Virus record (IMG/VR): IMGVR_UViG_3300043419_000731 | Span: 1 to 64,000 of that record | Strand: one strand, 5' to 3' | Source of the DNA: a virus | Length of the DNA stretch: 64,000 nucleotides | Shown: in pieces, positions 27,300 to 48,299 of the stretch | Position numbering within the stretch: position 1 is the first letter of the stretch | How the letters are laid out: each line of letters opens with the position of its first letter | The notes under the pieces: generated by a model | What the model saw: only the letters and a program-made list of their open reading frames with translations | Databases searched by the model: none | Told to the model about the DNA's origin: nothing | Program-made: the position numbers and the translations under genes

Positions 27300-28234
27300 T
27301 GGACAACTACCCAAGCGGACTCAAGTATTCTGTTAAAAAGTTTATTGATCATGACACTCCTAGAAAAGTTCAGTTTATGGACACAGGAGAAAAAAGGTCT
27401 TTGCCAGATGAAGTTCTAACTGATGATGGATACTGCGTAGTTGATAGTATTACTGAGCCAATCTATGAAGATCAACATAAGTTTCAGTATAAAATAAATG
27501 CGGAGGGATTTAGGTCACAACATTTTAAGACCTTAGATAAAGACTCTACAAATATATTATATGCTGGATGCTCGATGACTTATGGAGTGGGCCTACCTGA
27601 AGAGTACACATGGCATTCACTTTTAACATCTTTAATTAAAGAAAGGCTTCATCCTGAAGTAGAATCTTTTAACGTTGCCTCACCTGGTGCTAGCATACAT
27701 GAGATAGTTAGAAACTGTTTTATATTCTTTGAGAAGTATGGTAATCCAGACTACTTATTCATCTCTGTATCTGACATTGAAAGATCAATTAGCTTTGATA
27801 ATTCTGATGAAAAGTTTAAGCAAATAATTCCTTCTGAATTTAATTTGACTCAGAAAATGTCTAAGCAATTAATTTATGCTTTGTCATCCATCAACACTGC
27901 AAACAATTGGCTGCTATGTGCAGATATAATGTTTATGCTTGAGTCGTATTGCAAATCAGCAGGAATTAAGCTAGTATGGACATCTTGGGTAAGGCAGCAG
28001 GCTGACGATTGGGACAGCCTAAAGTTTGCAAATTACTTAAAGACAGAAGATTACAACATAAGAACTTGGTACTCGCCTATAACGGGTGAGGAAAAACCAG
28101 ATGGGCTAGAAGATAATGCAGACGGACTACCATATTGGGATTATGCCCGTGATGGATCACACCCAGGACTTCTATGGTCAAGAACAGTTTCAAAAAAGTT
28201 TATTGATGAAATTGAAAAGAGATGGTTTGAATAA
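27299..28234 (+). CDS. SGNH/GDSL-type hydrolase, copy 2
   Basis: 311 residues, clearly paralogous to the gene at 26273: shared blocks include YKINxxGxRSQHFKxLD, YAGCSxTYGxGLPEEYTW and YWxxARDGxHPG. Nucleophile in GCSMTYGVG, D-x2-H in ARDGSHPG. The copies differ most in the middle and C-terminal parts, suggesting different substrates or a heterodimer. Stop overlaps the carbamoyltransferase start. Confidence 0.7.
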   Translation: MDNYPSGLKYSVKKFIDHDTPRKVQFMDTGEKRSLPDEVLTDDGYCVVDSITEPIYEDQHKFQYKINAEGFRSQHFKTLDKDSTNILYAGCSMTYGVGLPEEYTWHSLLTSLIKERLHPEVESFNVASPGASIHEIVRNCFIFFEKYGNPDYLFISVSDIERSISFDNSDEKFKQIIPSEFNLTQKMSKQLIYALSSINTANNWLLCADIMFMLESYCKSAGIKLVWTSWVRQQADDWDSLKFANYLKTEDYNIRTWYSPITGEEKPDGLEDNADGLPYWDYARDGSHPGLLWSRTVSKKFIDEIEKRWFE

Positions 28235-29679
28235 TGATTATATTGGGTATTAATGAAACTTCTCATGATGCATCAGCATCTTTAATTAAAGATGGAGAGA
28301 TCCTTTTTGCTGGGCATGCTGAAAGATATAGTAAACAAAAAAATGATTGGTATATCAATAATGAATTAATTAATGATGCTTTATCATACGGTGCACCTGA
28401 TGCTATAGCCTACTATGAGAAACCGCTTCTAAAGGCCTCCAGGCTATTTCTAAGGGGTGGTGCAGGGGATTGGAAGCCAAAGTTTAATATTGAAGGTGTG
28501 CCTAGGAAATCATTTAAGCATCATTACTCACATGCATGTGCAGGATACTATACAAGCAAATTTACAGATGCTGCAATAGTAGTACTTGACGCAATGGGAG
28601 AATATAACACTTCTACCATATGGGTGGGAGAAGGCGAGTCAATTAAGTTAAAGTATAAGCAAGACTACCCAGTAAGCTTTGGATTATTTTATTCAGCATT
28701 CACGGATCTGATTGGCCTGATGCCCAACCAAGAAGAATACATAATGATGGGCATGGCTGCATACGGAGACTGGAAAAGATATTATAAAGAAGTAGATGCC
28801 TATTTCCCTAAATATCATACTCAAACATACAATTTCCATAAGGGTATAACAGACTGGGGATTTGATATTGAAGAAAAAGATAAGTTTGATATAGCAGCGG
28901 CAGTTCAAGTAGTATATGAGCAAAGACTCCTAGACTTCATGAGTATGGCTAAGAGACTGACTGGAAAGAAAAATCTTGTATTCATGGGTGGCTGTGCCCT
29001 AAATAGCAAAGCCAACACATTGCTATGGAACATATTTAAAGATATCTGGATTATGCCAAATCCTGGCGACGCTGGCAGTTCTTTAGGAGCTGCACTAGCT
29101 TTATATGGAAAGCATGTTGACTGGAAAACTCCATATCTTGGATACGATATGGGCGGAGAGTATCCAGTAAAAGATATAGTTGATGCAATACTTAAAGATG
29201 GAATAGTTGCAGTTGCAAGCGGAAGAGCTGAATATGGCCCAAGAGCTTTAGGGAATAGAAGCATACTTGCAGATCCTAGAGATCCAAACATTAAAGATAA
29301 AGTCAACTTAATTAAGCAAAGAGAGCAGTTCCGACCATTTGCACCAGTTGTTTTAGAAGAATGTGCTTCAAAATGGTTTGACATGAAGTTTACAAGCCCA
29401 TACATGCAATACACGGTTAAGTGTTTACAGCCAGAAAAAATTCCATCTGTTGTGCATGTAGACGGAACATCTAGAGTTCAAACTGTAAATAGAGAACAGC
29501 ATAGAGGATTATGGAGAGCAATAAATAAATTCTATATTCATACGGGCGTTCCAATATTATTAAATACAAGTTTAAATATAAAAGGCCAACCACTATTAAA
29601 TGATCATCAAGATGCTATTGACTGGCAGGCGCATTACGGATATAATATACTAACTAGCGGCAGTAGCTTAGTTGGTTAA
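28234..29679 (+). CDS. NodU/CmcH-family carbamoyltransferase
   Basis: 481 residues. The N-terminal Kae1-like domain starts ILGINETSHDASAS and has HHYSHA (H96, H97, H100) and VVLDAMGEYN; the C-terminal carbamoyl-transfer domain has EYGPRALGNRSILADPR and REQFRPFAPVVLEE. Family members move carbamoyl from carbamoyl phosphate through an adenylate to a hydroxyl on sugars, antibiotics or, in some phages, modified DNA bases. Target here unknown. Its last 23 nt overlap a tRNA-Met gene. It ends LTSGSSLVG, slightly shorter than many relatives. Confidence 0.85.
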   Translation: MIILGINETSHDASASLIKDGEILFAGHAERYSKQKNDWYINNELINDALSYGAPDAIAYYEKPLLKASRLFLRGGAGDWKPKFNIEGVPRKSFKHHYSHACAGYYTSKFTDAAIVVLDAMGEYNTSTIWVGEGESIKLKYKQDYPVSFGLFYSAFTDLIGLMPNQEEYIMMGMAAYGDWKRYYKEVDAYFPKYHTQTYNFHKGITDWGFDIEEKDKFDIAAAVQVVYEQRLLDFMSMAKRLTGKKNLVFMGGCALNSKANTLLWNIFKDIWIMPNPGDAGSSLGAALALYGKHVDWKTPYLGYDMGGEYPVKDIVDAILKDGIVAVASGRAEYGPRALGNRSILADPRDPNIKDKVNLIKQREQFRPFAPVVLEECASKWFDMKFTSPYMQYTVKCLQPEKIPSVVHVDGTSRVQTVNREQHRGLWRAINKFYIHTGVPILLNTSLNIKGQPLLNDHQDAIDWQAHYGYNILTSGSSLVG

Positions 29680-31519: not shown

Positions 31520-31990
31520 ATGAAACAACTAATTAACTCTCTACAGGAATTACAATCAAATTCATTCGTATACACTAACTTGGTCAAAGGGTTTTGGCTA
31601 AACACTGAATCAGTTTTAATGAGACAGTCACAAACAGTATATAAGGAAATCTATTTAGAGTCTGAAAGACTTCTACTAGAGACATCCCTGTGGTTACGTA
31701 GACTTGGTGGAGAAGCTTTATACACAATTGAAGAGATTTCTGACAGCCAAACATTAGGCAACGTAAAGCCAGATACCTACTGTGGTGTTGAAATGGCAGT
31801 CCATCTTGTTCCAATTAACAAGAGAATGATTGAAGACATTAAGATATTTACAGATCAAGCAATAGCAAGCAAAGAGTGGGCATTGGTTCAGCATCTATCA
31901 GAGCTGTTGAAAAAGCATCAGGAGTGGAATTGGTTCTTGGAGTCTAGCTTAAAGCTTCCTCCTAATCCATGGAAATCTCTTAAGGACTAA
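31520..31990 (+). CDS. Dps/ferritin-like helical protein
   Basis: 156 residues from ATG 31520 (leaderless-type promoter), preferred over an in-frame start at 31484 inside the oxygenase gene. A four-helix layout with YTNLVKGFWLNTESVLMRQSQTVYKEIYLESERLLLETSLWLRRLGG split across helices resembles Dps, including the LGG turn. The usual ferroxidase His residues are not obvious, though Glu at the E-x2-E positions remain. It may bind DNA or iron during infection. Family assignment is by pattern. Confidence 0.5.
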   Translation: MKQLINSLQELQSNSFVYTNLVKGFWLNTESVLMRQSQTVYKEIYLESERLLLETSLWLRRLGGEALYTIEEISDSQTLGNVKPDTYCGVEMAVHLVPINKRMIEDIKIFTDQAIASKEWALVQHLSELLKKHQEWNWFLESSLKLPPNPWKSLKD

Positions 31991-40697: not shown

Positions 40698-41819
40698 ATG
40701 AATAAAAAACTAATAACTGTATTACTATCACTATCATTTATTGTGCCTATGGCGGTACATGCTAACGCTGCTCCAGCAGCCCCAACGATTGCTATCCTAG
40801 ACACAGCTCTGGACTCATCGCTACCAGCATTTCAGGGCAAGGTAATTCAAGAAGTTTGCATTCTTCAGTTCGGCCTATGCCCAAATAATCAGTCATTTAT
40901 GGAAGGCCCAGGAGCAGCAGCAATGTCTGCTAACACAATCACTATGAACGGATTTGATCATGGTACTCAAATGGCATCTGTATTTGTTAAAACAAATCCA
41001 AATGCCAATATTGTATTCATTAGAATTATTGGAGATAAGGCAGGAGTTCGTCAGCCAGCAGGGGAGCCAACAGTATATAACGCTCTTAACTGGGTAAAAG
41101 CAAATGCATTAAAGTATAACATTCAGGCAGTAAGTATGTCGCAAGGCCACCATAATATTGGTGCAGCGGGAACAGATTATTGTCCAAAGACTCCAGTAAC
41201 TGAGCAGGCAGTAAAAGACCTTACGGCAATGCAAATTCCAGTGTTCTTTCCTTCTGGAAATGGTCGTGATTACTCACGTATTGATTGGCCAGCATGCCTA
41301 GATGTTTCAGTTTCTGTAGGATATACAGATCAGCAGGGAGAAATTTCTTCTTCTAGCAATAACGATGCAACAAAGCTTGACTTCTTTGCACTAGGATTTT
41401 TTACAAGCGCAGGTCCAGGTAATGTTCTAAAGAATATCTCAGGCTCATCTTCTGCTACACAGGTAATGGCAGCAAACTGGATTGCATATAAAACTGCAAA
41501 GCCAACTGCTACATATCAAGAAACTTTAGATGCATTCAGAAGTACTGCAGTTTCTACCGTTGGCCGTCAAGGAAAGTTTAATAAGCTTGTTGACTTAAAT
41601 AAAGCATTATCATATACTTCAGCCAAGCCCTCTGCACCAAGTGCAGCGGAACTTGCAGCAGCAGAAGCAGCAGCGCAGGCAGCAGCAAAAGCTGCCTTAC
41701 AAACACAAGTGAATGCTGCAATTGCAGCAGCAGAAGCACAGTATCAAATTGAATTAAAGGCTGCACAAGATAAGCTTGCTGCAACAAAGGCGACATGGTT
41801 GGCAAAACTCAATGGCTGA
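40698..41819 (+). CDS. Secreted subtilisin-like serine protease (S8)
   Basis: 373 residues. Signal peptide KKLITVLLSLSFIVPMAVHANA. Catalytic triad: D35 (IAILDTALD), H88 (FDHGTQMAS), Ser in GSSSATQVMA (about S251), with the oxyanion Asn in FPSGNGRD. A C-terminal Ala-rich helix follows (AAEAAAQAAAKAALQTQV). It is released outside the cytoplasmic membrane during infection and could cut surface proteins, phage receptors or the secreted proteins encoded nearby. A protease with both signal and triad is an unusual phage cargo. Confidence 0.8.
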   Translation: MNKKLITVLLSLSFIVPMAVHANAAPAAPTIAILDTALDSSLPAFQGKVIQEVCILQFGLCPNNQSFMEGPGAAAMSANTITMNGFDHGTQMASVFVKTNPNANIVFIRIIGDKAGVRQPAGEPTVYNALNWVKANALKYNIQAVSMSQGHHNIGAAGTDYCPKTPVTEQAVKDLTAMQIPVFFPSGNGRDYSRIDWPACLDVSVSVGYTDQQGEISSSSNNDATKLDFFALGFFTSAGPGNVLKNISGSSSATQVMAANWIAYKTAKPTATYQETLDAFRSTAVSTVGRQGKFNKLVDLNKALSYTSAKPSAPSAAELAAAEAAAQAAAKAALQTQVNAAIAAAEAQYQIELKAAQDKLAATKATWLAKLNG

Positions 41820-42018
41820 ATTAACAGTAATGGATGAAATCATTGGCGAAGTTGCTGAGGGTCTATATAAAAAATGGATTTCAGCAATGCCTGATGATGA
41901 AAAGAATCAACAAGCATTTAGTGCAATGTCAAAAAATGCACATGAAACAACTCTATTTGTAATTCAAGATTTTATGAATAGATTTAATGCAGCAGCGGAG
42001 GAGTTAAAGGATCAATGA
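41812..42018 (+). CDS. Small helical protein
   Basis: 68 residues from ATG 41812 (an upstream TTG at 41776 lies in the protease gene). MAELTVMDEIIGEVAEGLYKKW... is all-helical. It overlaps the protease gene and the thioredoxin gene. Function unknown. Confidence 0.6.
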   Translation: MAELTVMDEIIGEVAEGLYKKWISAMPDDEKNQQAFSAMSKNAHETTLFVIQDFMNRFNAAAEELKDQ

Positions 42019-42317
42019 TTGTCACAGATGAGACATTTGAATCAACACTATCTGCTCATGATTTAGTGCTCATAGATTTTTGGGCACCTTGGTGTGGACC
42101 ATGTAAAAAGATATCACCAATCTTAGATGAAATCTCAGATGAGCGTGGTTTATGGGTTGGAAAGTTAAATGTTGATGAGAATCCAGTAAAAACTGCTGAA
42201 TACTCTGTTGCTACTATCCCATATATGGTACTATTTAAGTCTGGTCAACCAGTAAAGACCATTACGGGCGCAAAGCCAAAGCATGTAATGCTTGAGGAGC
42301 TTTCGGAATGGATCTAG
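42015..42317 (+). CDS. trxA: Thioredoxin
   Basis: 100 residues. The active site WCGPC (C27, C30) lies in LIDFWAPWCGPCKK; the cis-Pro loop is VATIPYMVLF. Reduces disulfides or supports ribonucleotide reductase or polymerase in the host. Strongly overlaps its neighbours (4 nt and 10 nt). Confidence 0.9.
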   Translation: MIVTDETFESTLSAHDLVLIDFWAPWCGPCKKISPILDEISDERGLWVGKLNVDENPVKTAEYSVATIPYMVLFKSGQPVKTITGAKPKHVMLEELSEWI

Positions 42318-42502
42318 AAAATATAGACTCAGATCATTTAGAGTTTGAGATATGGTTGAAGAGCGGATATGACAGAGGATGGATTACTGATGTATTTTGT
42401 AATACACACGATGGTTCACCTATGACAGAAGAAGAAATGCAAGAATGGGATGAAGGCGGAGACCCGTGTTCGTTTCAGGTAAAGGTATTACCACTAAACT
42501 AA
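42308..42502 (+). CDS. Small acidic protein
   Basis: 64 residues. ITDVFCNTHDGSPMTEEEMQEWDEGGDPCSFQV has two Cys and one His, perhaps a small metal site. Similar short acidic proteins occur in actinophages with unknown function. Confidence 0.65.
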   Translation: MDLENIDSDHLEFEIWLKSGYDRGWITDVFCNTHDGSPMTEEEMQEWDEGGDPCSFQVKVLPLN

Positions 42503-42548
42503 CTTTCTGCGCTCATCTAGAGGCAGATTAATTAAGGAGAAAAAATAA

Positions 42549-43637
42549 ATGAAGTCATTTAAGAAACTATCGATTGCTACTGCTGCAGCTCTAGCAATTA
42601 CAACTGTTTCTGTAGCAACATCTTCGGCAGCACCACTAGCCGTTACGGTTGCAACAGTAACAAACGCAACAACATCTGCAGCACCTGCATCAGTTGCAGT
42701 ACCAGCAGCAAACCAGATCACATCTGGTACATCAGTAGCTTTAGCAGCAACTGCTGACACAAATACAGTAGTGTCTTTTGTAGCATCAGATACAATTAAG
42801 CTTGTAACTGCTTTGCACACAACAGATGCACCAAAGACAATTGCTTCTGGAGTATCTACACTATCACTAACATCAGCAGGATCAGCGCTTACTGTTTACG
42901 CTTATACAACAAGCGTTAAGGTTGGAACAGTAACAATTACAAACGGCGGTTATTCAACTGTTGTTTACATCAAGGGAACAGCAGGAGCAGCATCAAATGT
43001 TGCAGTCGCAGTCCCAGCAGCATCAGCAGTTGGAACAATTCCAACAGTAACTGTATCTGCTACAGACGTGTTTGGTAACCCAATTCTTACAGGTGAAACA
43101 ATCACTGCAACAGTTCTCGGTTCAACATTCTCAGATGGGACCATCACAAAGACACTCGTTACTTCTACAACAGCAGAAGCAACAGCAGACACAACTCTAG
43201 TTGCTGGCTCAAAGACTGCATCACTTGCAGTTGGCGTTGCTGGAACAGTTACAGTTGTAGTTACAGGTGCAACATCAGCAGCAACAGTTGCTGGCTTGAC
43301 AGCACCAACAAAGGCAGCACAGGCAGCATTTACTGTATCTGATCTTAATGGTACAGTAGCAACACTTACTGCACAGCTCGCAGCAGAGAAGGCTGGACGT
43401 GCACTTGATGCACAGGCAGCAGCAAATGTTCTCGCAGCAGAGAAGGCTGGACGTGCAGCAGATAAGGTTGCAGCAGATAAGGCACTTGCGGACGCAAAGG
43501 CAGCATCTGATTCAGCAACAGCAACAGCAAAGGCAGCAGCAGATCTTGCTCGTGCAACATATGTTGCAGAGTACAACGCTCTTGCTAAGAAGTGGAACGC
43601 TAAGAATCCAAAGGCTAAGGTTGCACTTAAGAAGTAA
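42549..43637 (+). CDS. Secreted host-like surface protein
   Basis: 362 residues with a signal peptide (SIATAAALAITTVSVATSSAA). The main part is Ala/Val/Thr-rich beta sheet (Ig or pilin-like, about 40-255), then a coiled-coil with repeated AAEKAGRA (about 270-340), and a basic end (AKKWNAKNPKAKVALKK). Composition resembles actinobacterial envelope proteins more than a phage structural protein, so transfer from a host is possible. AAGGAG lies ahead of ATG 42549. A strong terminator closes it. Confidence 0.65.
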   Translation: MKSFKKLSIATAAALAITTVSVATSSAAPLAVTVATVTNATTSAAPASVAVPAANQITSGTSVALAATADTNTVVSFVASDTIKLVTALHTTDAPKTIASGVSTLSLTSAGSALTVYAYTTSVKVGTVTITNGGYSTVVYIKGTAGAASNVAVAVPAASAVGTIPTVTVSATDVFGNPILTGETITATVLGSTFSDGTITKTLVTSTTAEATADTTLVAGSKTASLAVGVAGTVTVVVTGATSAATVAGLTAPTKAAQAAFTVSDLNGTVATLTAQLAAEKAGRALDAQAAANVLAAEKAGRAADKVAADKALADAKAASDSATATAKAAADLARATYVAEYNALAKKWNAKNPKAKVALKK

Positions 43638-44069: not shown

Positions 44070-44192
44070 ATGCTCAGCGATAAGTGTGAAATAAAAGATT
44101 GTAATAAGCCAGCCAAGCACATAGGCTCATTGCCTGAGACTGGTATTATTGATATGTGTGCAGATTGTTACCACAGATTATATAGGTCATAA
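44070..44192 (+). CDS. Small Cys-containing protein
   Basis: 40 residues. CEIKDC (6-11) and CADC (about 30-33) give a likely zinc site, and it ends YHRLYRS. Two nt separate it from the radical SAM start. It may be a peptide substrate or a co-factor for that enzyme; neither is shown. Confidence 0.5.
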   Translation: MLSDKCEIKDCNKPAKHIGSLPETGIIDMCADCYHRLYRS

Positions 44193-44194
44193 TA

Positions 44195-45196
44195 ATGAAT
44201 AAGTATTTAATCAAGGCAGTCCAGCTTGATGTAAATGGCTTATGCAATTCTTCTTGCTGGTTTTGCCCAGTCGCCTATGCTGGTAATCCAAAGTCAGCAA
44301 TAAGAGATATGCCTTTATCAGAGATAGAGGATATATTTATTCAATTGACTGAAGGCAAAGGTGACTTTGTAGATCCAGGTCTATCTATAGTTTACTCTGC
44401 TAATTACAATGAGGTTCTTTTGTATAAAGAGTTTGACGCAATGATGGATCTATATGCAAAGTATAATTTTAAAACTAACATACTAACCAACGGAGTCAAC
44501 CTAACTAAATCTAAAACCGATTTACTTATCAAGCACAAAGATTCAATACAGGGAATACTATTAAACATCCCATCATCTGATCCAGAAACTTGGTCTAAAT
44601 ATGTTGGTATGAATATAAACCTGTTTGATAAAGTAATTAATAATGTTAAGCATTTTATAGAAGAAAATAATAAGCTTGAGAATCCAATATTTATTCATTT
44701 AATGATAAATGGTATCAATGAGCTATCATTGACTGAAAATGGTGGATGGCTTAACCTATTAGAAAATGCTCCAATAATGGATCTAAGCCTAGAGAGTGGT
44801 GATCTAAAAAAGGAGCATGATAGATTTCAATCTATATTCCCTAATTTAAGTATAAGCACAGCTCATCACCTATACGACAGGGCGGCACACCTTGAAACAC
44901 ATAAGGTTATGACTCAGGGACCTGCTATTGAAAAGTATTTAAAGGTAAATGGTAGTCGTGTAATTGGATGCAATGGTGGTCTTGGAGTTAGAAGTAGAAC
45001 TAATGAATGGATACATATTAACCCAAATGGAGATTTATTTATTTGCTGTGCTGATTATGATTTTGAAACAATATATGGCAACGCATTTAGCCAGTCAATA
45101 AAGGAAATATGGCACAGCAAGTCAAGGTCTGACATGGTTGAAGAGTCCTATTCTAAGATGTGCACGAGCTGTTCTGCGGCCATTTGGGGCGACTGA
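44195..45196 (+). CDS. Radical SAM protein with C-terminal SPASM-like cysteines
   Basis: 333 residues. The cluster motif is C17-x3-C21-x2-C24 (GLCNSSCWFCP). C-terminal cysteines in GCNGG, LFICCADYDF and MCTSCSA suggest a SPASM or twitch domain that holds extra iron-sulfur clusters, typical of peptide-modifying enzymes. It abstracts hydrogen with a 5'-deoxyadenosyl radical. It is followed at once by a run of tiny ORFs and then an oxygenase, which makes a peptide-modifying role attractive but unproven. The stop overlaps the next start. Confidence 0.8.
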   Translation: MNKYLIKAVQLDVNGLCNSSCWFCPVAYAGNPKSAIRDMPLSEIEDIFIQLTEGKGDFVDPGLSIVYSANYNEVLLYKEFDAMMDLYAKYNFKTNILTNGVNLTKSKTDLLIKHKDSIQGILLNIPSSDPETWSKYVGMNINLFDKVINNVKHFIEENNKLENPIFIHLMINGINELSLTENGGWLNLLENAPIMDLSLESGDLKKEHDRFQSIFPNLSISTAHHLYDRAAHLETHKVMTQGPAIEKYLKVNGSRVIGCNGGLGVRSRTNEWIHINPNGDLFICCADYDFETIYGNAFSQSIKEIWHSKSRSDMVEESYSKMCTSCSAAIWGD

Positions 45197-45300
45197 TGTG
45201 CTGGTTATGTGGGTGCGCTGATCATGTTGGCCTAGGCAACGAGAGAGAGCCTGAAGAGAAGCCTGATCCTAATCAACTAAATGCTATAATAGAGTCATAA
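45196..45300 (+). CDS. Tiny Cys-motif protein CWLCGC
   Basis: 34 residues, MCWLCGCADHVGLGNEREPE..., TGATG overlap with the radical SAM stop. Shares M-C-x2-C-G-C with the ORF at 45657. The end overlaps the promoter of the next unit. It may be a metal-binding peptide or a radical SAM substrate. Confidence 0.55.
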   Translation: MCWLCGCADHVGLGNEREPEEKPDPNQLNAIIES

Positions 45301-45321
45301 GCGGAATACTAGTCCCGCTTA
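45282..45321 (+). promoter_or_regulatory. Extended -10 promoter with 7-bp hairpin leader
   Basis: TGC plus TATAAT (45285-45290). TAAGCGG (45298-45304) pairs with CCGCTTA (45315-45321), right at the expected start (about 45297). TAGGAG lies before ATG 45347. Confidence 0.65.
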
Positions 45322-45346
45322 AATAAATAACCTATAGGAGTACCAA

Positions 45347-45505
45347 ATGACAACAAATGGAATTAACGGTGGTGGTTTTGAAGCTGCTAAGCCAGCAGGA
45401 ACTAACAGCATCAATGCACACTATTCAGACAATACAGGATCAGCATTCCCAGCAACAGATAAGTCAACACAAGACGGTTCAGGCGTAGGCCAGGGCGGAA
45501 AGTAA
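45347..45505 (+). CDS. Small Gly-rich protein
   Basis: 52 residues, MTTNGINGGGFEAAKPAGTN... ending SGVGQGGK. No Cys; disordered and Gly/Ser-rich. TAGGAG upstream. It is the first gene of a new transcript and might be a small structural or peptide precursor. Confidence 0.55.
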   Translation: MTTNGINGGGFEAAKPAGTNSINAHYSDNTGSAFPATDKSTQDGSGVGQGGK

Positions 45506-45507
45506 TA

Positions 45508-45657
45508 ATGTCGATCTTTGATAAAGAAGAAGTTGTAGCACCAACACAGGCAGCAGCAGTTGCTGCAGCTATAAAGCCATCGGCTAAGGTTGAGTGCACA
45601 AGAGACACAAGAGGCGATGCTCCTTGTGCAGTGAAGGATTGCGAGAACTGTAACTAA
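45508..45657 (+). CDS. Small Cys-rich-ended protein
   Basis: 49 residues. A helix (VAPTQAAAVAAAIKPSAK) precedes a C-terminal cluster VECTRDTRGDAPCAVKDCENCN with four Cys. Leader-like and core-like halves are compatible with a modified peptide, but a zinc or Fe-S site fits equally. TAATG junction with the next ORF. Confidence 0.5.
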   Translation: MSIFDKEEVVAPTQAAAVAAAIKPSAKVECTRDTRGDAPCAVKDCENCN

Positions 45658-45845
45658 TGTGCATAATGTGTGGTTGCGGAGATTCTAGTAATTTCGGAGA
45701 TATTAAATCACAAGATGCCCCAATGTTTACAATTGGAGATATTTTTGGTGGAGATATAGACGACTTATCAGAGTCAGGTATTAGAGACAGAGATTCTGAA
45801 TCTACTTATAACCCAAGCGGAGAAGTAGAAGACGATAATGACTAA
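45657..45845 (+). CDS. Small Cys-motif protein CIMCGCGD
   Basis: 62 residues. M-C-I-M-C-G-C-G-D at the very start, then an acidic body (IDDLSESGIRDRDSESTYN). The N-terminal three-Cys motif matches the ORF at 45196. Real start supported by overlap with the previous stop. Confidence 0.5.
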   Translation: MCIMCGCGDSSNFGDIKSQDAPMFTIGDIFGGDIDDLSESGIRDRDSESTYNPSGEVEDDND

Positions 45846-46044
45846 TAGTTTTAAAAAAGAAGATGGTACTGGCATGGTTCCACCAGCTAACGCTGGTGCA
45901 CCTGCTGGTGCTGTAACAAGCACAAACACGCCAAAGAGATATCCAAGGCAGGGTGTAAGAATAGATACTAATAAGCATGGCATTCGAAGAGAAACAAGCT
46001 TAGTACCTAAGCCACCTAAAAAAAGCGGTAGAAAGAAAGTTTAA
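45838..46044 (+). CDS. Small Pro/Ala/Lys-rich protein
   Basis: 68 residues. PPANAGAPAGAVTST followed by a basic tail KPPKKSGRKKV. Disordered, with ATGA-type overlap with the neighbour. Function unknown. Confidence 0.5.
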   Translation: MTNSFKKEDGTGMVPPANAGAPAGAVTSTNTPKRYPRQGVRIDTNKHGIRRETSLVPKPPKKSGRKKV

Positions 46045-46133
46045 TGTGTAGATCATGTGGTGATTGTTCAAAAGAACATTCATTTAACATTGATGATGCA
46101 ATAGATGGGGTTCTAGATTCTCCCATCATTTAG
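46044..46133 (+). CDS. Tiny Cys-motif protein CRSCGDC
   Basis: 29 residues, MCRSCGDCSKEHSFNIDDAIDG.... Shares the N-terminal M-C-x2-C-G pattern with the two ORFs at 45196 and 45657. TAATG overlap. It ends 14 nt before the oxygenase start. Confidence 0.5.
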   Translation: MCRSCGDCSKEHSFNIDDAIDGVLDSPII

Positions 46134-46147
46134 ATATTGGAGTTGTG

Positions 46148-46789
46148 GTGAGCGTTTTAAATATAGATGCTATTGTAAATCAAGGGTATCAGTTTGAGCA
46201 GCTTGATGAGAACATTCTCCTTATAAAAAACTTTTTAACAGATGAAGACCTCAGTATTCTTTGGGATATTATAAATAATTCTACAGATGAAGACTGGGGT
46301 CTTCAACTGCACTACACCAAGCACCTAGAAGATCGTGCAGAAGAGCTTACTGGCAAGCGTGATATAGATGCTGCAGGCATAGAAAGAACCGATAACTGGG
46401 ACGACAAGGTTACACCATTGAGTGGTAAGACGCATCTTGTTCAAGATTTGCCAGAGCGGGTATCAAAATTTTTTAGCAGTGATTGTGGATTTGAATTCAG
46501 AAGCTTTGGAACTATACAGAGAATGTATAAAGGCACTGAGTTAAAAGCACACTACGATGATAGAGCAGATGTAAGACATGTCTGGGCATCAGTTGCTTAT
46601 ATTAATGATGATTATAATGGCGGAGAACTTTACTTTACACACAAAAATATACAGATTAAACCACCAAAGGGTAGTATCATGATATTCCCAGCAACTGAGG
46701 AATACGAGCATGGAGTAAAGCATGTAATAGATGGCCCATTCAGATATGTGCTTCCTGCATTTATCTTCGATCACTCTAAAAAGATATAA
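46148..46789 (+). CDS. 2OG-Fe(II) oxygenase, prolyl-4-hydroxylase type
   Basis: 213 residues from GTG 46148 (GGAG 5 nt upstream; GTG 46145 also possible). H135-Y-D137 (KAHYDDRADV) and the distal His in EHGVKHV bind iron; the Arg in PFRYVL binds 2-oxoglutarate. The core YINDDYNGGELYF matches the copies at 30847 and 49877. It lies directly between the small Cys peptides and the PLP enzyme, suggesting a shared substrate. Confidence 0.8.
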   Translation: MSVLNIDAIVNQGYQFEQLDENILLIKNFLTDEDLSILWDIINNSTDEDWGLQLHYTKHLEDRAEELTGKRDIDAAGIERTDNWDDKVTPLSGKTHLVQDLPERVSKFFSSDCGFEFRSFGTIQRMYKGTELKAHYDDRADVRHVWASVAYINDDYNGGELYFTHKNIQIKPPKGSIMIFPATEEYEHGVKHVIDGPFRYVLPAFIFDHSKKI

Positions 46790-47847
46790 TGTATTCATTT
46801 GAAACAAGAGCCATTTCCAGCGGAAGGCCAGATCGATACCCAGATGGACCGCTAAACACACCAGTATCACTTAATTCTACCTACACAGCAGGTGGATCAT
46901 GGGGATATGGTCGGTATGGAAATGATTCATGCATCTCGCTAGAGGAAACGATATCTCAATTAGAGGGCGGAAAGACATTAGCATTTGCATCAGGAATGTC
47001 AGCAATAAGCTCTTTGTTTTCAACAATACCAGTTGGATCAGTAGTTGTCTCATCAAATCAGGGCTATGCTGGAGTTAATGCAACTATGCAAAAACTTCAT
47101 GATGAAGGCAAGATATTTGCAAGATTTGTTGACATATCAAATACTGGAGAAGTTTTAGCCAGCATCGAAGGTGCTTACATGCTATGGCTGGAGTCTCCAA
47201 CAAATCCAAGACTTGATATAGCTGATTTAAACAGACTTATCAGAGCATGTAATAGAACTGGAGTTATTGTTGGAGTTGATAATACTTTTGCAACTCCCAT
47301 TAACCAGAGGCCTCTGGAGTTGGGTGCAGATATGTCTATGAACTCTGTCACTAAGTATTTAGCTGGACATAGTGATGTATTGATGGGCTCTATATCTTTT
47401 AATAATCAAGGCCTATATGATTCAGTAGAGTTTGCAAGAAAAATCAATGGCACAATACCACAGCCATTTGAAGCATGGCTTGCCCTCAGAGGAATTAGAA
47501 CATTTCCATTAAGATTTAAAAAAGCAGAATCAAATGCAAAGCAGCTTTTTAATTTAATTAGTAATCACCCAATGATTTCAAAAGTTTATTACCCAGGGTT
47601 TGGCGCCATGATCTCATTTGAAGTAGACGCTTCACCAGAAGAAGTTGAAGATATTTGCAACAGATCAAAGCTTATTGCTAATGCTACTAGCCTTGGAAGC
47701 GTGGAATCAATATGGGAAAGAAGAAGGCGTTGGGCCCTAGAGAGCCCTTTGGTCTCTGAAAGTTTAATTAGATTATCTGTTGGATGCGAGGATGTCGAAG
47801 ATATCTGGAATGATATAATAGAATCATTAAGCAAATATGCCAGATAG
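46789..47847 (+). CDS. Cystathionine gamma-synthase/lyase-family PLP enzyme
   Basis: 352 residues. FETRAISSGRPDRYPDGPLNTPVSLNSTY at the N-terminus, the PLP-anchor K189 in NSVTKYLAGHSDVLMG, and VDNTFATP match MetB/MetC-type enzymes. It is 30-40 residues short of cellular forms. Such enzymes do beta- or gamma-elimination or replacement on Cys, Met or homoserine derivatives. In phages PLP enzymes occur in thymidine hypermodification and amino-acid pathways. Start overlaps the oxygenase stop (TAATG). Confidence 0.85.
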   Translation: MYSFETRAISSGRPDRYPDGPLNTPVSLNSTYTAGGSWGYGRYGNDSCISLEETISQLEGGKTLAFASGMSAISSLFSTIPVGSVVVSSNQGYAGVNATMQKLHDEGKIFARFVDISNTGEVLASIEGAYMLWLESPTNPRLDIADLNRLIRACNRTGVIVGVDNTFATPINQRPLELGADMSMNSVTKYLAGHSDVLMGSISFNNQGLYDSVEFARKINGTIPQPFEAWLALRGIRTFPLRFKKAESNAKQLFNLISNHPMISKVYYPGFGAMISFEVDASPEEVEDICNRSKLIANATSLGSVESIWERRRRWALESPLVSESLIRLSVGCEDVEDIWNDIIESLSKYAR

Positions 47848-48082
47848 AAAATTAATAGATGGCAGTATTGCTAAAGAGTACAGCGATCCAGTAACCATAA
47901 CAGTCTACACCAAAGCTCCAACAAAATGGAAGCTTACTGATATGCAAACTGGAGAAGAGTATATAGCAGATTTTCGCCCAGCTAAAGTTGATGCATTGGC
48001 TATGATTAAAATGGGCGGATTCAGGAATATACAAAAAAATACATACGGGACGTGGGTTAAAATTGAGAAAACTACTGAATAA
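47837..48082 (+). CDS. Small protein, paralogue A
   Basis: 81 residues. The block ITVYTKAPTKWKLTDMQTGEEYIA is repeated, with changes, in the next gene. A beta-hairpin-rich fold is likely. Overlaps the PLP gene by 11 nt. Function unknown. Confidence 0.6.
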   Translation: MPDRKLIDGSIAKEYSDPVTITVYTKAPTKWKLTDMQTGEEYIADFRPAKVDALAMIKMGGFRNIQKNTYGTWVKIEKTTE

Positions 48083-48119
48083 TGTATATGGATTTCTTCC
48101 AAGGGTCTATCAAGGTGCT

Positions 48120-48299
48120 ATGGTGGAAGAGTTTCCAAAGGCTGTGGATTTAACAATACACACAAAGGCGCCAGGTAAATGGCTACTAATCGATTTAGAA
48201 ACTGGTCAAGAGTACATAGGGTCAGATGTTCCTACTAAATATGGCAGGTGGAAAAGACTAAAAGACAGGTATGTTCCAGACAACCAGGACATGCTATAA
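48120..48299 (+). CDS. Small protein, paralogue B
   Basis: 59 residues from ATG 48120 (AAGGTG upstream). A longer form from TTG 48063 is possible and would overlap paralogue A. LTIHTKAPGKWLLIDLETGQEYIGS aligns with paralogue A at about half of its positions. Tandem duplication inside the enzyme island. Confidence 0.55.
   Translation: MVEEFPKAVDLTIHTKAPGKWLLIDLETGQEYIGSDVPTKYGRWKRLKDRYVPDNQDML

What the first reader, a model, noticed from the sequence alone, without database searches (positions are those of the whole stretch)
44195..46789. Radical SAM/SPASM enzyme followed by tiny peptide-like ORFs and an oxygenase: possible peptide-modifying system
Between the radical SAM gene and the 2OG oxygenase lie six ORFs of 29-68 aa (45196, 45347, 45508, 45657, 45838, 46044). 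Three begin with M-C-x-x-C-G (45196 CWLCGC, 45657 CIMCGCGD, 46044 CRSCGDC), and 45508 ends in a four-Cys cluster. A PLP enzyme of cystathionine type follows at once. SPASM radical SAM enzymes usually modify peptides, and 2OG oxygenases and PLP sulfur enzymes can act on the same targets. I know of no described phage RiPP-like cassette with this set. The small proteins could instead be independent metal proteins.
Basis: inference. Interest (0 to 1): 0.7.

Follow-up and report, generated by a model that had tools for sequence, protein, structure and literature searches.

The report
Phage enzyme paired with tiny peptide

Summary
Of the six small ORFs, only the first (MCW, 45196) belongs to the radical SAM enzyme (radSAM). 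MCW-type peptides occur in 46 IMG/VR contigs, always on a contig carrying the radSAM gene; 46 of 48 radSAM contigs carry the peptide. On a backbone-gene tree of 58 genomes both are present (23) or both absent (35), with 5 well-supported switches. The inserted block ends at about MCW codon 23-28; the rest of that ORF is a pre-existing extended -10 promoter (TGNTATAAT) of the next gene, so the real peptide is about 23 aa. ORFs s2-s6 are backbone genes: s4- and s6-type MCxxCG peptides are widespread where radSAM is absent (0 of 164 loci). The cystathionine-lyase-type PLP enzyme (27/27 contigs) and the 2OG oxygenase (9 contigs) are nested accessories. The enzyme has a twitch-like domain (one auxiliary cluster), not a seven-cysteine SPASM domain, and fits no named NCBIfam family. 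Most likely MCW is its peptide substrate; a metal-binding partner (same Cys2/5/7 spacing as the HypB nickel site) is the main rival. The chemistry is untested.

The parts
44195..45196 (+). radSAM: radical SAM enzyme, 333 aa, CxxxCxxC (C17,C21,C24) plus C259,C284,C285,C323,C326; twitch-like C-terminal domain
45196..45264 (+). MCW peptide, functional part (about 23 codons): MCWLCGCADHVGLGNEREPEEKP; start overlaps the radSAM stop (TGATG)
45265..45300 (+). tail of ORF 45196 (DPNQLNAIIES), backbone DNA read through as codons; shared with radSAM-less relatives
45282..45290 (+). extended -10 promoter element TGCTATAAT for the s2-s6 genes, inside the MCW ORF tail
45299..45320 (+). AAGCGG...CCGCTT inverted repeat in the s2 leader, seen in related loci with and without radSAM
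46145..46789 (+). 2OG-Fe(II) oxygenase, optional accessory (9 radSAM contigs, all PLP+; no ortholog in 164 radSAM-less loci)
46789..47847 (+). PLP enzyme of the cystathionine gamma-lyase/synthase family, optional accessory (27 of 48 radSAM contigs, none found without radSAM)
45347..45505 (+). s2, backbone small ORF, not part of the cassette
45508..45657 (+). s3, backbone small ORF with C-terminal cysteines (lost in L002), not part of the cassette
45657..45845 (+). s4, MCxxCGC microprotein of a slot that is common without radSAM
45838..46044 (+). s5, backbone small basic ORF (present in 58 of 58 tree genomes)
46044..46133 (+). s6, MCxxCGxCSKEH microprotein, common without radSAM
44070..44192 (+). 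p40, 40-aa CxxxxC/CxxC ORF on the left side of the insertion slot

Best explanation
The unit is a two-gene module in a variable slot of a phage backbone: a twitch-type radical SAM enzyme, with a dedicated peptide of about 23 aa (MCW[LIM]CGCADH[VI]G[LP]GN[ED][RK] plus a charged tail) whose start codon overlaps or closely follows the enzyme's stop. SHOWN: the two genes are gained and lost together, the peptide is under stronger purifying selection than the enzyme's C-terminal part, and the other small ORFs are not part of the unit. INFERRED: the peptide is the enzyme's substrate. The 5'-deoxyadenosyl radical would abstract an H atom from the conserved C-W-x-C-G-C-A-D-H stretch, and the auxiliary [4Fe-4S] cluster would take up the second electron, giving an oxidative Cys- or Trp-centred crosslink. 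In subclades the PLP lyase and then the 2OG oxygenase would tailor it further. The product would act inside the infected cell; no exporter or leader peptidase was recognised among the neighbouring genes examined.
For: (1) MCW pattern scan: 45 contigs, each with the enzyme gene directly upstream or one gene away; L054's fetched piece is cut short but its contig has it. A pattern with no Trp required found only one more contig, L109's, which also has the enzyme. (2) 46 of 48 enzyme contigs have the peptide. (3) 58 distinct genomes on a backbone tree: 23 both, 35 neither; 9 switches on the best tree, 5 on well-supported branches, peptide following the enzyme in 5 of 5. (4) They stay together when the PLP gene lies between them (L012-L015). 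(5) Seven empty-site comparisons: homology resumes 68-111 bases after the MCW start. (6) MCW codons 2-17: pN 0.089, pS 0.836, against 0.182/0.719 for the last 100 enzyme codons; W3, C2, C5, C7, A8, D9, H10, G12 invariant in 30 distinct sequences while third positions vary. (7) Cluster cysteines C17,C21,C24 and C259,C284,C285,C323,C326. Weak similarity to peptide maturases (KxxxW cyclase, WgkB, DynA, ACGX); PDB neighbours include SuiB, SkfB, EpeE, anSME.
Against: No RRE domain and no leader/core division in the peptide. The best PDB sequence match is the small-molecule enzyme BtrN (1.5e-9). The Cys2/5/7 motif also sits at the N-terminus of several other microprotein families in phages without the enzyme, so those cysteines can do something that needs no radSAM. 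Two enzyme genes lack the peptide (L107; L110 with only the tail left). Five supported switches alone do not reach p<0.05 (0.0625). The invariance of residues 1-10 is partly fixed by the search pattern. Nothing chemical was tested.
Confidence: 0.45

Rival explanations
1. MCW is a metal-binding microprotein partner of the enzyme, not a substrate: after Met removal the N-terminal amine with Cys2, Cys5, Cys7 (and His10) binds a metal ion or cluster and serves as chaperone, reductant or extra cluster ligand for radSAM.
For: Cys2/Cys5/Cys7 plus the N-terminal amine is the high-affinity Ni(II) site of E. coli HypB (PMC7055735). CxxCGC sits at residue 2 in 114 of 141 occurrences in these loci (22 more directly after an internal Met, 5 truly internal), and about seven microprotein families plus two 2OG oxygenases (L026, L034) start with MCxxC, so position at the N-terminus matters. 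Dps-like ferritin genes occur in 17 of 45 MCW loci against 1 of 164 radSAM-less loci.
Against: W3, A8, D9, G12 and the GN at 14-15 are conserved in MCW only, more than a metal site needs. Other MCxxCGC peptides need no radSAM, so sharing the motif does not explain the strict pairing.
Confidence: 0.3
2. The enzyme works on a small molecule or another protein (sugar, nucleotide or virion glycan) like BtrN or BlsE, and MCW is only a co-inherited member of the phage microprotein family.
For: BtrN is the best PDB sequence match; DesII and BlsE are among the structural neighbours; the neighbourhood holds a sulfotransferase-like ORF, a GlcNAc-type glycosyltransferase and further 2OG oxygenases; L107 carries the enzyme without the peptide.
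Against: Strict pairing through several switches, retention across gene rearrangement, and strong purifying selection on a 17-residue peptide.
Confidence: 0.2
3. One reading: radSAM with all six small ORFs as alternative peptide substrates, tailored by the 2OG and PLP enzymes.
For: All are adjacent and co-directional; three share MCxxCG starts.
Against: s4- and s6-type ORFs are common where the enzyme is absent (0 of 164 loci); s5 is present in all 58 tree genomes whatever the enzyme's state; s2 and s3 are backbone genes; s2-s6 have their own promoter-like element.
Confidence: 0.05

Closest known systems
PqqE/PqqA, StrB/StrA (SuiB/SuiA), WgkB, MftC and similar radical SAM-RiPP pairs
   Same: One radical SAM enzyme with an auxiliary cluster domain beside one short ORF; the peptide is a few dozen residues; weak sequence similarity to KxxxW cyclase and WgkB profiles
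   Different: Here the conserved part is at the extreme N-terminus (no leader), the enzyme has no RRE and a twitch-like rather than SPASM domain, and it is phage-borne; no NCBIfam cut-off is approached
BtrN (2-deoxy-scyllo-inosamine dehydrogenase, PDB 4M7T)
   Same: Radical SAM core with twitch domain; best PDB sequence match (1.5e-9)
   Different: BtrN acts on an aminocyclitol; no peptide partner
EpeE/YydG radical SAM peptide epimerase (PDB 8AI1)
   Same: Second PDB sequence match (9e-5), similar length
   Different: No YydF-like precursor recognised here; match is to the N-terminal part only
HypB N-terminal nickel site
   Same: Met-Cys-x-x-Cys-Gly-Cys start, Cys2/5/7 (PMC7055735)
   Different: MCW has no GTPase domain and adds W3, D9, H10, G12
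A0A6J5RAW2, radical SAM protein of an uncultured Caudovirales phage
   Same: 46% identical, TM 0.73-0.75 in BFVD
   Different: Uncharacterised; its neighbourhood was not available
Streptomyces phages of Stanwilliamsviridae (BillNye)
   Same: DNA polymerase 57.6% identical over 100%; distant relatives of the backbone
   Different: BillNye has no match to the MCxxCG start pattern and no radSAM relative is in the INPHARED collection

Membership tests
SPASM-domain radical SAM enzyme | seven-cysteine motif CX9-15GX4C-gap-CX2CX5CX3C-gap-C binding two auxiliary clusters (PMC6231123) | tested here: not met
   Only C259, C284, C285, C323, C326 are conserved in the C-terminal part of 24 sequences; the protein ends seven residues after the CX2C
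Twitch-domain radical SAM enzyme | truncated SPASM binding one auxiliary cluster with up to four Cys | tested here: met
   C259...C284/C285...C323xxC326 gives four to five conserved Cys, as in BtrN (PMC6231123); cluster content itself not measured
Radical SAM superfamily | CxxxCxxC cluster motif and Pfam Radical_SAM above cut-off | tested here: met
   C17-x3-C21-x2-C24; PF04055 36 bits, cut-off 29.5
RiPP biosynthetic pair | dedicated precursor peptide co-occurring with the enzyme | tested here: met
   46 of 46 MCW contigs have the enzyme, 46 of 48 enzyme contigs have the peptide
RiPP biosynthetic pair | leader peptide and RRE (PqqD-like) recognition domain | tested here: not met
   Radical SAM core begins near residue 7; no RRE hit; peptide conserved from residue 1. 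Not all RiPP radical SAM enzymes carry an RRE (own knowledge)
RiPP biosynthetic pair | post-translational modification of the peptide by the enzyme | not testable with these tools
   Needs co-expression and mass spectrometry
Named NCBIfam radical SAM peptide maturases | score above the curated cut-off | tested here: not met
   Best 44 bits against a cut-off of 250 (spiroSPASM); others further off
Prokaryotic viperin | viperin profile match above cut-off | tested here: not met
   20.5 bits, cut-off 180; PADLOC pVip 5.2e-7 over the N-terminal core only
HypB-type nickel site | Cys2, Cys5, Cys7 with free N-terminus | tested here: met
   Invariant in 30 distinct MCW sequences (partly fixed by the search pattern); metal binding itself not testable here
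HypB | G3E GTPase domain | tested here: not met
   MCW ORFs are 23-41 aa
Cystathionine gamma-lyase/synthase family PLP enzymes | PF01053 and catalytic Lys | tested here: met
   1.1e-79; K189 and the Y-x-R and SGM motifs invariant; no NCBIfam equivalog cut-off reached (best 291.7 bits, cut-off 440), so the reaction is open

The most novel reading that the evidence does not exclude
The phage makes a peptide-derived cofactor or chelator: the enzyme modifies the Cys/Trp N-terminus of MCW into a redox or metal-binding group (in the manner of PQQ or methanobactin), or MCW lends its cysteines in trans to complete the truncated auxiliary-cluster domain of the enzyme. Either would be a metal/redox cofactor system encoded by a virus, with the other MCxxCGC microproteins of these phages as related metal carriers.
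Probability: 0.13. Interest if true: 0.85.

Novelty: new variant of a known kind. Interest (0 to 1): 0.57.

Why it matters
It turns a vague 'six peptides and an enzyme' into one testable pair: a 333-aa enzyme and a 23-aa peptide that can be made synthetically. I found no described phage radical SAM-peptide pair of this kind in the papers searched; the nearest is a report of PqqA and radical SAM genes in Lake Baikal viruses (PMC7678222). It also shows that CxxCGC N-termini are a recurring feature of these phages' tiny proteins, an unexplained theme of its own, and that conservation at the C-terminus of a small ORF can be promoter DNA rather than protein.

Tried and rejected
(1) All six ORFs as substrates: rejected by distribution. 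(2) The conserved DPNQLN-DII tail of MCW as a leader or binding motif: rejected; it is the TGNTATAAT promoter element, present right after p40 where radSAM is absent, and missing from the 23-25 aa peptides of L025, L029 and L064 that are followed directly by the PLP gene. (3) A frameshift fusion of radSAM and MCW: rejected because in L012-L015 the PLP gene lies between them. (4) A cellular source: genome-contig scans found no relative of the enzyme; the one MCW-pattern hit (Sphingobacteriaceae MAG, MCWVCGCLQHPDFY) reads as a 14-aa ORF and is taken as chance. (5) Viperin/defence: partial core match only. (6) Fold search: only generic radical SAM neighbours, rmsd mostly 6-11 A, model pLDDT 77 with weak cluster loops; uninformative on substrate. 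(8) tblastn of a 28-aa s6 consensus and of s5 in INPHARED found nothing, so no named phage carries close copies at that sensitivity.
Full report
OBSERVATION. The window is part of a 120,465-base virus record. The three MCxxCG starts at 45196, 45657 and 46044 are the only ones in the whole record and exceed chance (0.1 per 64 kb in Markov-random sequence). Names used here: radSAM (44195), MCW (45196), s2-s6 (45347, 45508, 45657, 45838, 46044), 2OG (46145), PLP (46789), p40 (44070).

WHICH SMALL ORF BELONGS TO THE ENZYME. A scan of IMG/VR (2.9 million contigs) for MCWxCGCADH found 45 contigs. Each has a radSAM relative (56-100% identical) directly upstream, or one gene away where the PLP gene lies between; L054's fetched piece is too short to show it, but its contig is that of L014, which has the gene. 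A looser scan (MC, any residue, a codon with T in the middle, CGCA, any residue, H, a codon with T in the middle, G) gave those 45 plus L109's contig (MCWICGCASHVG), which also has the enzyme. In the other direction, 46 of 48 contigs with the enzyme carry the peptide. L107 lacks it on its 32.7 kb contig, and L110 has an intact enzyme end followed by only the tail of the peptide ORF. The contigs reduce to 25 distinct MCW peptides in the first scan and about 31 distinct enzyme sequences, so repeated sampling of the same phage inflates the raw counts.

BACKBONE AND SLOT. None of the 164 new loci so obtained contains radSAM by an HMM of 24 sequences, and none contains a PLP relative; the best 2OG match is 35%, so no ortholog. 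Yet they share the same gene order: S8 peptidase, thioredoxin, p42549, p43705, p47, p40, s2, s3, s4, s5, s6, p81/p78. Some of these loci are short fragments. In 54 of them both p40 and s2 are present, and in 41 only 59-155 bases lie between them: the empty slot.

THE TAIL OF ORF 45196 IS A PROMOTER ELEMENT. In the empty slots p40 is followed by DNA such as GATCCTAATCAACTAAATGCTATAATA, an inverted repeat and AGGAG before s2. The same DNA is the last third of the MCW ORF, where it reads DPNQLNAII. TGNTATAAT is found in every distinct MCW locus listed except L025, L029 and L064, where the PLP gene follows at once and the peptide is only 23-25 aa. In the window the motif occurs 15 times against 5.5 expected, often at gene ends. 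In seven pairs of related loci with and without the enzyme, homology resumes 68-111 bases after the MCW start, in window terms at about 45265 or a little later. Left-hand homology ends at or upstream of p40, so the variable block includes radSAM and the first 23 or more MCW codons, plus other genes such as the Dps-like one in some phages. That the element is an active promoter is inferred from the consensus, not measured.

REPEATED GAIN AND LOSS. A tree of thioredoxin, p42308 and p43705 DNA from 58 distinct genomes has 23 with and 35 without the enzyme. The label changes 9 times on the best tree and at least 5 times on well-supported branches. MCW has the same state as the enzyme in all 58. 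In the 5 independent supported pairs MCW follows every time, PLP in 3-4, s5 never differs, and s6 follows no pattern. Five pairs cannot reach p<0.05 alone (0.0625), and recombination among backbone genes could change the count. The pairing rests on this together with the collection-wide scans.

SELECTION. Over MCW codons 2-17, pN is 0.089 and pS 0.836; over the last 100 codons of the enzyme 0.182 and 0.719. C2, W3, C5, G6, C7, A8, D9, H10 and G12 are invariant in 30 distinct sequences (the scan pattern fixed most of residues 1-10, but the looser scan added only one variant), while their third codon positions vary freely. The conservation is therefore at protein level.

THE ENZYME. Pfam finds Radical_SAM and SPASM. 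No NCBIfam model comes near its cut-off; the weak hits are mostly peptide maturases. The PDB sequence matches are BtrN (1.5e-9) and EpeE/YydG (9e-5). The AlphaFold model (pLDDT 77, pTM 0.82) has DesII, BtrN, SuiB, SkfB, EpeE and anSME as structural neighbours. Conserved cysteines outside the CxxxCxxC motif are C259, C284, C285, C323, C326, which fits a one-cluster twitch domain, not the seven-cysteine SPASM motif (definitions from PMC6231123 and PMC9012708). PMC6231123 states that function is hard to predict from sequence networks in this group. A 46% identical viral protein of unknown function is in BFVD.

ACCESSORIES. The 27 PLP relatives at 59% or more identity are all on contigs that carry radSAM and an MCW peptide; the next six matches are 26-35% (compared). 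The 2OG gene is in 9 contigs, all PLP-positive. So 2OG is nested in PLP, which is nested in the pair. The PLP enzyme has the family's catalytic residues and is nearest cystathionine gamma-lyases; its reaction is open.

MECHANISM. Shown by sequence: a near-obligate association of one enzyme with one about-23-aa peptide, independent of the other small ORFs. Inferred: the peptide is the substrate (0.45). The main rival is a metal-binding partner (0.30), because Cys2, Cys5, Cys7 and the N-terminal amine form the high-affinity nickel site of HypB (PMC7055735), because the motif is tied to residue 2, and because it heads several other microprotein families that live without the enzyme and even the oxygenases of L026 and L034. 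A small-molecule substrate with a bystander peptide is third (0.20). No experiment bears on the choice.

HOST AND NOVELTY. The DNA polymerase is 57.6% identical to that of Streptomyces phage BillNye (Stanwilliamsviridae), so an actinobacterial host is likely but not shown. No INPHARED phage carries the enzyme, and no bacterial or archaeal genome in the pattern scan carries a relative. Literature searches found no phage pair of this kind; that library covers open-licence papers only. I rate it a new variant of a known kind: a radical SAM-peptide pair of unusual build in phages.

Noticed in passing
L116-L279 and window 45657-46133: About seven microprotein families with unrelated tails share an N-terminal MCxxC motif (mostly MCxxCG), nearly always at residue 2; two 2OG oxygenases (L026, L034) begin with it too. 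Function unknown; spacing in many equals the HypB nickel site.
   Followed up: partly
window, 15 sites, e.g. 18870, 23719, 34112, 34889, 37756, 45282, 47811, 48292: TGNTATAAT is enriched (15 against 5.5 expected) and often lies at gene ends or in gaps: probably the phage's extended -10 promoter.
   Followed up: partly
L104:4529-4999 and window 31535-31954: A Dps/ferritin-like gene lies directly upstream of radSAM in the L031-type phages and elsewhere in other radSAM phages (17 of 45 MCW loci against 1 of 164); the window phage has a Dps-like ORF at 31535.
   Followed up: partly
L107: A radSAM relative (60%) without MCW, among TylF-like methyltransferase and IMPDH-like ORFs (names from reading the translations) and followed by the sulfotransferase-like ORF: possibly a different use of the enzyme.
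   Followed up: partly
L110:2340-2420: MCW start region missing while the tail/promoter and the enzyme remain; could be a decayed peptide gene or an assembly fault.
   Followed up: partly
window 47837-48299: Two adjacent ORFs (p81, p78) are paralogues (about 41% over 46 residues) that occur as one or two copies across relatives.
   Followed up: no
window 40698-43637: Subtilase-like protein with signal-like start, thioredoxin, and an Ala/Thr/Ser-rich 362-aa protein without family hits form a conserved block left of the slot.
   Followed up: no
window 28234-29679: Nol-like carbamoyltransferase (phrog_1601, 1.4e-105).
   Followed up: no
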